Positions 3,493 to 5,168 of a stretch of 64,000 bases of DNA are shown piece by piece. The notes beneath the pieces were generated by a model. The model ran no database searches. It was not told the origin of the DNA and saw nothing but the letters and a program-made list of their open reading frames with translations. Source of the DNA: Bacteroidales bacterium (lineage in GTDB: Bacteria > Bacteroidota > Bacteroidia > Bacteroidales > UBA1402); NCBI GenBank assembly GCA_021373135.1, contig JAJFTH010000003.1, positions 124,001-188,000 of the forward strand, written 5' to 3'. How positions within the stretch are numbered: position 1 is the stretch's first letter; the number at the start of each line of letters is the position of its first letter. The position numbers and the translations under genes are program-made.

Positions 3493-3582
3493 AGAGGGTG
3501 GGCTCATAGTGAAGTGACCTCCAAAAGTTGGACAAAAACTTTTGGGGGTCACTTCAAAACGGGTTCACCCTCTGTCGTTTTT
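3493..3582 (+). terminator. Long two-part hairpin terminator after ppdK, resembling fused IS ends
   Basis: The outer stem pairs 3493-3505 with 3561-3573 (13 bp including three G-U pairs). The inner stem is a near-perfect inverted repeat, 3511-3555, reading GAAGTGACCTCCAAAAGTT and its complement with one G/A difference. A T-run (3578-3582) follows, so it should terminate ppdK transcripts. The inner arms resemble the terminal repeats of IS150-group IS3 elements (TGACCCCCAAAAGTTGGACA type, from memory) placed head to head with no transposase between. Confidence 0.75.
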
Positions 3583-3679: not shown

Positions 3680-3973
3680 TTGAAAACCAAAGATTTTGTT
3701 CAAAAAATCCAGCATAATATAACGGTAAATCCGGAAAGGTCAGCTGAACTTGTGGAACTTACAACCTCTATCATTGCCAGGATTTTGGGTGATGGAGATG
3801 CTCTTGCGATAAAAGGTTTTGGCACTTTTGAAGTGAAGAAAAAAGAAGAACGTGTCTCCGTTAATCCGGTTACAGGAAATCGTTGGATGATTCCTCCCAA
3901 ATTGGTCCCGAGTTTTAAGCCGGGAACAACATTGAAGGAAAAAATAAAAACCTATTCCGGCCATGAACAATAA
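3680..3973 (+). CDS. HU/IHF-family DNA-binding protein
   Basis: A 97-residue protein with the bacterial histone-like fold. Helical dimerisation residues 1-40 are followed by the conserved GFGTFEVKKKEERVSVNPVTG segment and the beta-arm that enters the minor groove (about residues 55-80). It should bind and bend DNA as a homo- or heterodimer. No ATG exists in frame after the stop at 3665-3667, so TTG at 3680 is the only reasonable start. Its 3' end overlaps the next gene by 11 nt, so the two HU-fold proteins are translationally coupled and may form a heterodimer. A perfect palindrome lies upstream. Confidence 0.9.
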   Translation: MKTKDFVQKIQHNITVNPERSAELVELTTSIIARILGDGDALAIKGFGTFEVKKKEERVSVNPVTGNRWMIPPKLVPSFKPGTTLKEKIKTYSGHEQ

Positions 3974-5168
3974 ACTGTTATTTCAAGATTTGACGGACCA
4001 ACTTTCCGAATCAGGGAAGTTGAAGAAAAAAGATACGGAAGAATTTTTAAAAGCATTTTTCAAGGTTATTGAAGATTCACTTTTTGAAGGTGAAACAGTA
4101 AAAATTCAAGGCCTTGGAACCTTTAAGCTGTTAAAGGTGGAATCCCGTAAAAGTGTGAATGTCTCAACGGGTGAAGAATTCGAAATCAAAGAACATTACA
4201 AGATATCATTTTCTCCTGATAATACCCTGAAGGAAATTGTAAATGAGCCTTTCTCTTACCTGGAACCCGTCGAACTGGATGGATCTTCTGCAAAGAAAGA
4301 ACCTGTTGTGCGGAATATTCGCGAGGAAAAGGACAGGTTTGATGAAATGATCATAAATGCAGAAGAAAAAGAAGAAGAAATGGAAAAAAAACCTGATAAA
4401 CCAAAAGGAACACCACATAACATGATGCCACAAAACACAGACGACTTAAGAACACCAAACAAAGAGCGAAAAAATGAAACGCAACAGCCCACGAACGGAT
4501 CCCAAAAAAAATCCGAAAAATCAGGTGGATCCAAGAATTCCGGAAGTTTCTTTCGGGTATTCCTGATTTTGATTGTATTGGCATTGGCAGCGTGGGCTAT
4601 CCTGTCCAATTATTCCGCCAAAAAAGAAAATGACCATAAATTGAAAGAATTTGCTGTCATTGATGCCGACACTTCCTTTGAAGATACTCCGTCTGAAGAT
4701 TTTGAAACCGTTATTCAAGATTCCTTAAAACTCGAAGCTGAGATTGCTGCAAAGGTAGAATCTCTGGCGATAGCCGAAAAAAACGGCGGTGGCAAAAATT
4801 TGGCTTCGAAACCATCTGCTATAGCAAAACCGACACCGGTTGCTGCAACCAAGGAAAATGAGGCAATCAAGCCGAAAATGACGACTCAGGGCAGTACAGG
4901 ATCAGATAGAGTGACCTTTCCTGTCTTTGTCAAACTTAAACAAGGAGAGATGCTTACCGTTTTATCCTTGAAATATTACGGGCACAAAGCCTTTTGGGTA
5001 TACATCTATGCAGCCAATATGGATGTCATTAAAGATCCGGACCACATCCCCCTCGGAACAAGAATCCGAATTCCAAAACCGGATACCTCTATCATCAATG
5101 CCAATGATCCGGATTGTGTAGCAAAAGCGAAGGCTCTTCAGACCAAGATATTGTCAAGAAAAGAATAA
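3963..5168 (+). CDS. Membrane-anchored HU-like protein with C-terminal LysM domain
   Basis: This 401-residue protein joins three modules. Residues 1-95 are an HU/IHF-like domain (QGLGTFKLLKVESRKSVNVSTG). A charged, low-complexity linker (about 96-193) leads to one hydrophobic segment at about 196-217 (FFRVFLILIVLALAAWAIL). A second linker rich in A/E/K/P leads to a LysM-like domain at about 323-373 (LKQGEMLTVLSLKYYG, then IPLGTRIRIP). With lysines before the membrane segment, the HU domain should be cytoplasmic and LysM periplasmic, so the protein could link DNA to peptidoglycan. That topology is inference; domain assignments come from motifs. It overlaps the preceding HU gene. Confidence 0.85.
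   Translation: MNNKLLFQDLTDQLSESGKLKKKDTEEFLKAFFKVIEDSLFEGETVKIQGLGTFKLLKVESRKSVNVSTGEEFEIKEHYKISFSPDNTLKEIVNEPFSYLEPVELDGSSAKKEPVVRNIREEKDRFDEMIINAEEKEEEMEKKPDKPKGTPHNMMPQNTDDLRTPNKERKNETQQPTNGSQKKSEKSGGSKNSGSFFRVFLILIVLALAAWAILSNYSAKKENDHKLKEFAVIDADTSFEDTPSEDFETVIQDSLKLEAEIAAKVESLAIAEKNGGGKNLASKPSAIAKPTPVAATKENEAIKPKMTTQGSTGSDRVTFPVFVKLKQGEMLTVLSLKYYGHKAFWVYIYAANMDVIKDPDHIPLGTRIRIPKPDTSIINANDPDCVAKAKALQTKILSRKE

What the first reader, a model, noticed from the sequence alone, without database searches (positions are those of the whole stretch)
3963..5168. HU DNA-binding domain fused through a membrane helix to a periplasmic LysM domain
The sequence shows an HU/IHF-like N-terminus, one hydrophobic helix (about residues 196-217) and a LysM-like C-terminus in one 401-residue frame, translationally coupled to a second HU-fold gene. 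Inferred topology would tie chromosomal DNA through the inner membrane to peptidoglycan, a direct physical link between nucleoid and cell wall. Individual domains are well known; their combined function is, to my knowledge, not described.
Basis: partly seen in the sequence, partly recalled or inferred. Interest (0 to 1): 0.75.

Follow-up and report, generated by a model that had tools for sequence, protein, structure and literature searches.

The report
Membrane-anchored HU protein with LysM domain
Many gut-type bacteria of the order Bacteroidales carry a conserved gene pair whose larger protein looks like a DNA-binding HU protein attached through the cell membrane to a cell-wall-type LysM domain, so the two proteins together may tie the chromosome to the cell wall, although nobody has yet shown that it binds DNA or the wall.

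Summary
Confirmed: 3963-5168 encodes HU domain - acidic linker - one membrane helix - linker - LysM fold, overlapping by 11 nt an upstream short HU gene (3680-3973). It is no chance fusion: in the best 80 of 482 GTDB loci the same architecture and the same upstream HU gene recur (80/80). Sampling finds it in roughly a fifth of Bacteroidales genomes and not in genomes sampled outside the order. Topology is N-in/C-out by charge bias.

New here: the two HU genes behave as halves of one asymmetric heterodimer. The short subunit is basic (median +6) and keeps the intercalating proline (79/79). The anchored subunit is neutral and has Val/Ile there (80/80). Their divergence is correlated beyond operon background. 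In three genomes of two families both HU units are fused in one chain; one is predicted to fold like single-chain IHF. The same LysM subfamily caps OmpA-type outer-membrane proteins, supporting a periplasmic, wall-associated role.

Most likely: a transmembrane IHF-like heterodimer linking DNA to peptidoglycan. DNA and wall binding are untested; a protein scaffold (as in RodZ or CCDC81) is the main rival. A precedent, HU-CCDC81-TM-SPOR, is present in this same genome. New variant of a known kind.

The parts
3680..3973 (+). Short HU-family gene (97 aa, TTG start), proposed free partner subunit; keeps the arm-tip proline (SVNPVTG)
   Evidence: PF00216 E 2.6e-21; homologue directly upstream in 80/80 loci
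3963..3973 (+). 11-nt overlap of the two reading frames (translational coupling)
   Evidence: sequence; 58 of 79 homologous pairs overlap by 4, 8 or 11 nt
3963..5168 (+). HU-TM-LysM protein, 401 aa
3963..4253 (+). HU domain, residues 1-97; arm tip RKSVNVSTG with Val in place of the intercalating Pro
4254..4541 (+). Low-confidence, poorly conserved acidic cytoplasmic linker
   Evidence: pLDDT mostly 33-50; family mean 28% D+E
4548..4613 (+). Single transmembrane helix, residues 196-217
4923..5078 (+). LysM-fold domain, residues 321-372, predicted periplasmic
5109..5162 (+). Conserved C-terminal helix after the LysM (residues 383-400), a family-specific extension
   Evidence: shared with the OmpA-LysM protein

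Best explanation
The two overlapping genes encode an asymmetric IHF-like heterodimer. The short HU subunit supplies most of the basic surface and the proline-tipped arm. The long subunit supplies the other half of the dimer plus a membrane anchor: a long, probably disordered acidic cytoplasmic stalk, one transmembrane helix and a periplasmic LysM domain that engages peptidoglycan. Chromosomal DNA bent by the heterodimer would thereby be held at the inner membrane and mechanically coupled to the wall, probably with little sequence specificity, to position or segregate the nucleoid in Bacteroidales. Shown here: architecture, conservation, gene pairing, topology bias, subunit asymmetry, correlated divergence and natural HU-HU fusions. 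Inferred: heterodimerisation, DNA binding, peptidoglycan binding and the cellular role.
For: HU and LysM folds. HU-1TM-LysM in one frame in 80/80 loci, short HU adjacent in 80/80, frames overlapping in 58/79. K+R before versus after the helix 4.7 versus 1.8, N-side richer in 70/81, p=3e-13, so HU inside and LysM outside. Short subunit Pro 79/79 and net charge +6; long subunit Val/Ile 80/80 and charge about 0; pair median +5, in the range of HU/IHF. Distance correlation short-long HU 0.71 after removing MoxR distance, above short HU-LysM 0.42 and long HU-LysM 0.44. Natural HU-HU-TM-LysM single chains in G042, G339 and G188; one is modelled as an intramolecular dimer, best match single-chain IHF, Z 12.7 over 128 residues. 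Same LysM subfamily on OmpA-type outer-membrane proteins.
Against: The long HU has neutral charge, no intercalating proline and a conserved acidic residue (D/E in 79/80 at position 86), and its arm is degenerate or deleted in the three fused forms, so the long half may not touch DNA. The nearest LysM structures (Kbp, phage and injection-system baseplates) are not peptidoglycan-binding paradigms. The family is absent from most Bacteroidales genomes sampled, so the function is not universal in the order.
Confidence: 0.5

Rival explanations
1. The HU heterodimer is a protein-protein module, not a DNA binder: a RodZ-like envelope scaffold in which the cytoplasmic HU dimer holds a cytoskeletal or division protein and the LysM holds the wall.
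For: Neutral anchored HU with the proline replaced in every member and arms degenerate or deleted in fused forms. The HU-HU fold model also matches proteins from doublet microtubules and a Mycoplasma gliding ATPase complex (Z 8.2-12.1), i.e. HU-like tandems in protein assemblies. The RodZ precedent is own knowledge.
Against: The short partner retains the basic arm (K/R at 53-55, R58, N/H62, P63, R68, K74) and basic C-terminal helix in nearly all members, features expected only if DNA contact is selected.
Confidence: 0.25
2. A transmembrane regulator: LysM senses wall state and the HU pair changes transcription of particular genes (ToxR-like one-component logic), for example the downstream moxR/Bat operon.
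For: MoxR-DUF58-Bat genes lie downstream in the window and in 37 of 80 loci.
Against: More than half of the fetched loci show no such neighbour in the flank held, with other unrelated genes there instead. HU domains generally lack specific operator recognition (own knowledge).
Confidence: 0.12
3. The long protein anchors DNA to the membrane but the LysM serves a structural or ion-related role (as in Kbp or baseplates) rather than binding peptidoglycan.
For: Closest LysM matches by sequence and fold are Kbp and contractile-tail LysMs; PF01476 not reported.
Against: Same LysM subfamily attached to the peptidoglycan-type OmpA domain in three genomes.
Confidence: 0.1

Closest known systems
HU-CCDC81_bac - TM - SPOR proteins of Bacteroidota (Pfam PF18174/PF18175 + PF05036; predicted chromosome-partition factors, Burroughs et al. 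2017, recalled, paper not held)
   Same: HU-superfamily domains, hydrophobic segment, C-terminal peptidoglycan-type domain; one is encoded in this same genome (L133:1871-2923)
   Different: HU of the CCDC81 clade in tandem within one chain and SPOR instead of LysM; no sequence similarity to our protein; found in 20 of 21 relatives, including genomes without HU-LysM
IHF alpha/beta heterodimer
   Same: Two diverged HU-fold subunits; fused natural version modelled like single-chain IHF
   Different: Genes overlap in one operon, one subunit is membrane-anchored, only one subunit keeps the arm proline
Kbp (YgaU) LysM / Phage_tail_X LysM-like domains
   Same: Closest LysM matches by sequence and fold
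   Different: Here on a membrane protein, predicted periplasmic, with an extra conserved C-terminal helix
RodZ (own knowledge)
   Same: DNA-binding-type fold in the cytoplasm, one TM helix, periplasmic domain
   Different: HTH instead of HU; binds MreB; no LysM; no overlapping partner subunit

Membership tests
HU/IHF (PF00216) | Profile match and fold | tested here: met
   E 2.5e-23 and 2.6e-21; Z up to 10.9
HU/IHF (PF00216) | Intercalating proline at arm tip | tested here: not met
   Long subunit Val/Ile in 80/80; the short subunit does have it, 79/79
HU/IHF (PF00216) | DNA binding and bending | not testable with these tools
   needs EMSA or ChIP
LysM | Beta-alpha-alpha-beta LysM fold | tested here: met
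   AF2 pLDDT above 93, Z 7.2-8.0 to LysM domains
LysM | Pfam PF01476 profile above cut-off | tested here: not met
   not reported at E<=1; Phage_tail_X at 22.5 bits versus cut-off 22 for the isolated domain; relative L149 matches PF01476 at E 0.003, below cut-off
LysM | Binds peptidoglycan/GlcNAc chains | not testable with these tools
   needs pull-down; indirect support from OmpA fusions
HU-CCDC81-SPOR | CCDC81-type HU domains (PF18174/PF18175) | tested here: not met
   no bac_1/bac_2 match in the window protein
HU-CCDC81-SPOR | SPOR domain at C-terminus | tested here: not met
   LysM fold instead
HU-TM-peptidoglycan-domain architecture in general | HU, TM and wall-type domain in one chain, N-in | tested here: met
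   (predicted topology; wall binding itself not tested)
IHF-like heterodimer | Two paralogous subunits that dimerise with each other | tested here: inconclusive
   paralogues, co-divergence and natural fusions support it; no physical test

The most novel reading that the evidence does not exclude
Bacteroidales possess a dedicated two-subunit, IHF-like transmembrane tether in which only one subunit is anchored, physically coupling chromosomal DNA to peptidoglycan and acting alongside the separate HU-SPOR system in nucleoid positioning.
Probability: 0.45. Interest if true: 0.85.

Novelty: new variant of a known kind. Interest (0 to 1): 0.62.

Why it matters
A protein that directly connects nucleoid and cell wall would be a rare molecular link, in a major gut phylum whose chromosome organisation is little studied (own knowledge). 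The conserved asymmetry (proline kept in the free subunit, always replaced in the anchored one) and the natural fusions give clear, testable predictions.

Tried and rejected
Chance or frameshift fusion: rejected, 80/80 relatives. Signal peptide/exported HU: no 19-residue stretch averaging above 1.45 hydropathy near the N-terminus of any member. Local regulator of the Bat operon: neighbours vary. Replacement of HU-SPOR by HU-LysM: both occur in the same genome. A mixed alignment of single and fused HU misaligned the second HU and was not used for folding. Literature searches found no description of an HU-LysM protein in the held library; the key HU-superfamily paper is not held, so prior mention there cannot be excluded.

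Full report
Observation. The frame at 3963-5168 is real and complete. Pfam places an HU domain at residues 8-94 (E 2.5e-23); the short gene at 3680-3973 is a second HU (E 2.6e-21). Both subunits match solved HU/IHF chains. AlphaFold2 on a 19-member alignment models the HU part at pLDDT about 93, a helix at 194-230 and a compact domain at 321-372, with low-confidence linkers. Foldseek and VIA-align identify HU/IHF for the first domain (Z to 10.9), and VIA-align Kbp or contractile-tail LysM domains for the last (Z 7.2-8.0). The generic LysM model of Pfam did not report it; Phage_tail_X, which I recall as LysM-related, matches the isolated domain just over its cut-off. So the LysM call rests on fold and on Kbp-type sequence similarity.

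Distribution. A scan of genome contigs found 482 relatives; the best 80 were kept. This set is biased towards full-length matches, because the search motif lies in the LysM and loci were ranked by match. All 80 have HU, one hydrophobic helix and LysM in one frame, and all 80 have a short HU gene immediately upstream (57 by motif, the other 23 by profile). Of 79 measured pairs, 58 overlap by 4, 8 or 11 nt. Named hosts include Dysgonomonas, Parabacteroides, Paludibacter, Tannerella, Coprobacter and Muribaculaceae. In a spread sample of the order, 53 of 247 genomes have the LysM subfamily at E<=1e-10, including a few short or unrelated LysM proteins. In class and phylum samples at E<=1e-14 the only hits outside the order were two short stand-alone frames of 86 and 109 aa. 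I did not work out the phylogeny of the genomes in the order that lack it.

Context. Downstream moxR/DUF58/Bat genes occur in 37 of 80 loci and PPDK upstream in 4. In Dysgonomonas, Parabacteroides and Porphyromonas-labelled loci, ftsY and rimO homologues (named from sequence by eye, not profile-searched) precede the pair. Downstream genes differ, which argues against a local regulator.

Topology. Over 81 proteins the 15 residues before the helix carry 4.7 K+R and those after it 1.8; the N side is richer in 70, equal in 8 and poorer in 3 (Wilcoxon p=3e-13; related sequences are not independent). In the window protein itself the counts are equal (4 and 4), but net charge is +3 versus +1. This supports HU in the cytoplasm. 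Independent support for a periplasmic LysM comes from L141, L144 and L147, where the same LysM subfamily follows an OmpA domain and a beta-barrel domain (L141 has 40% identity to the window LysM region, E 4e-20).

Two subunits. In an HU tree the short and the anchored subunits form separate groups, both apart from a housekeeping HU of this genome (the support value for the anchored group was not informative). At the position of the DNA-intercalating proline of HU/IHF the anchored subunit has Val (73) or Ile (7), never Pro; the short one has Pro in 79/79. Median net charges are 0 and +6, pair +5. Pairwise distances of short HU and anchored HU correlate at 0.86, and at 0.71 after regressing out MoxR, versus 0.42 and 0.44 for the pairs with LysM; bootstrap differences exclude zero and 0 of 1000 permutations reach the value. 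In G042 and G339 (one family) and G188 (another), the short HU, anchored HU, TM and LysM are one frame. The G042 HU-HU part is predicted with pTM 0.67 from three sequences and best matches single-chain IHF by VIA-align (Z 12.7 over 128 residues). It also matches HU-like tandem proteins from axonemal microtubules and a Mycoplasma motor, a reminder that HU dimers can serve as protein modules.

Interpretation. The simplest account is an IHF-like heterodimer with one anchored half, linking DNA to the wall. The competing scaffold reading is serious because the anchored HU lost canonical DNA-binding features.

Known relatives. The same genome encodes an HU-CCDC81-TM-SPOR protein (PF18174 6.9e-24, PF18175 8e-15, SPOR 1.4e-6), a known architecture for which, from memory, a chromosome-partition role was predicted. 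Our protein fails its defining domains but shares the logic, hence new variant of a known kind. No paper on an HU-LysM protein was found in the held library, which lacks most subscription journals.

Noticed in passing
window 3493-3573: Very strong nested hairpin between ppdk and the short HU gene (-56 kcal/mol, z -9.7): a 20-bp inverted repeat set inside a 13-bp terminator-like stem, single copy in the genome; looks like a small inserted element or a remnant of insertion-sequence ends inside the ppdk terminator.
   Followed up: partly
L133:1871-2923 (own genome G000:C9, about 314370-315422): HU-CCDC81_bac-TM-SPOR protein in the same genome: a second HU-membrane-wall-domain protein with no sequence similarity to the first.
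   Followed up: partly
L141:1079-2752 (-), L144:1090-2730 (-), L147:1256-2971 (-): The same LysM subfamily fused to OmpA-type outer-membrane proteins in three genomes; L141 and L147 also keep its C-terminal helix region.
   Followed up: yes
L138:563-2824, L145:1139-3109 (-), L149:776-1858: Short HU, anchored HU, TM and LysM naturally fused in one frame; the second HU arm is degenerate or, in L149, deleted.
   Followed up: yes
L140:306-1953: One genome (G330) with a degenerate HU, an HU-TM-LysM frame and a further TM-LysM frame without HU in tandem, besides a larger relative elsewhere.
   Followed up: no
L139:639-2537: 633-aa protein with an N-terminal region resembling degenerate tandem HU (by eye only, no Pfam match), a very long charged repeat, TM and the same LysM.
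   Followed up: no
L142:1193-2551 (-): HU pair and TM-LysM in two overlapping frames in G413: either an assembly error or a frameshift.
   Followed up: no
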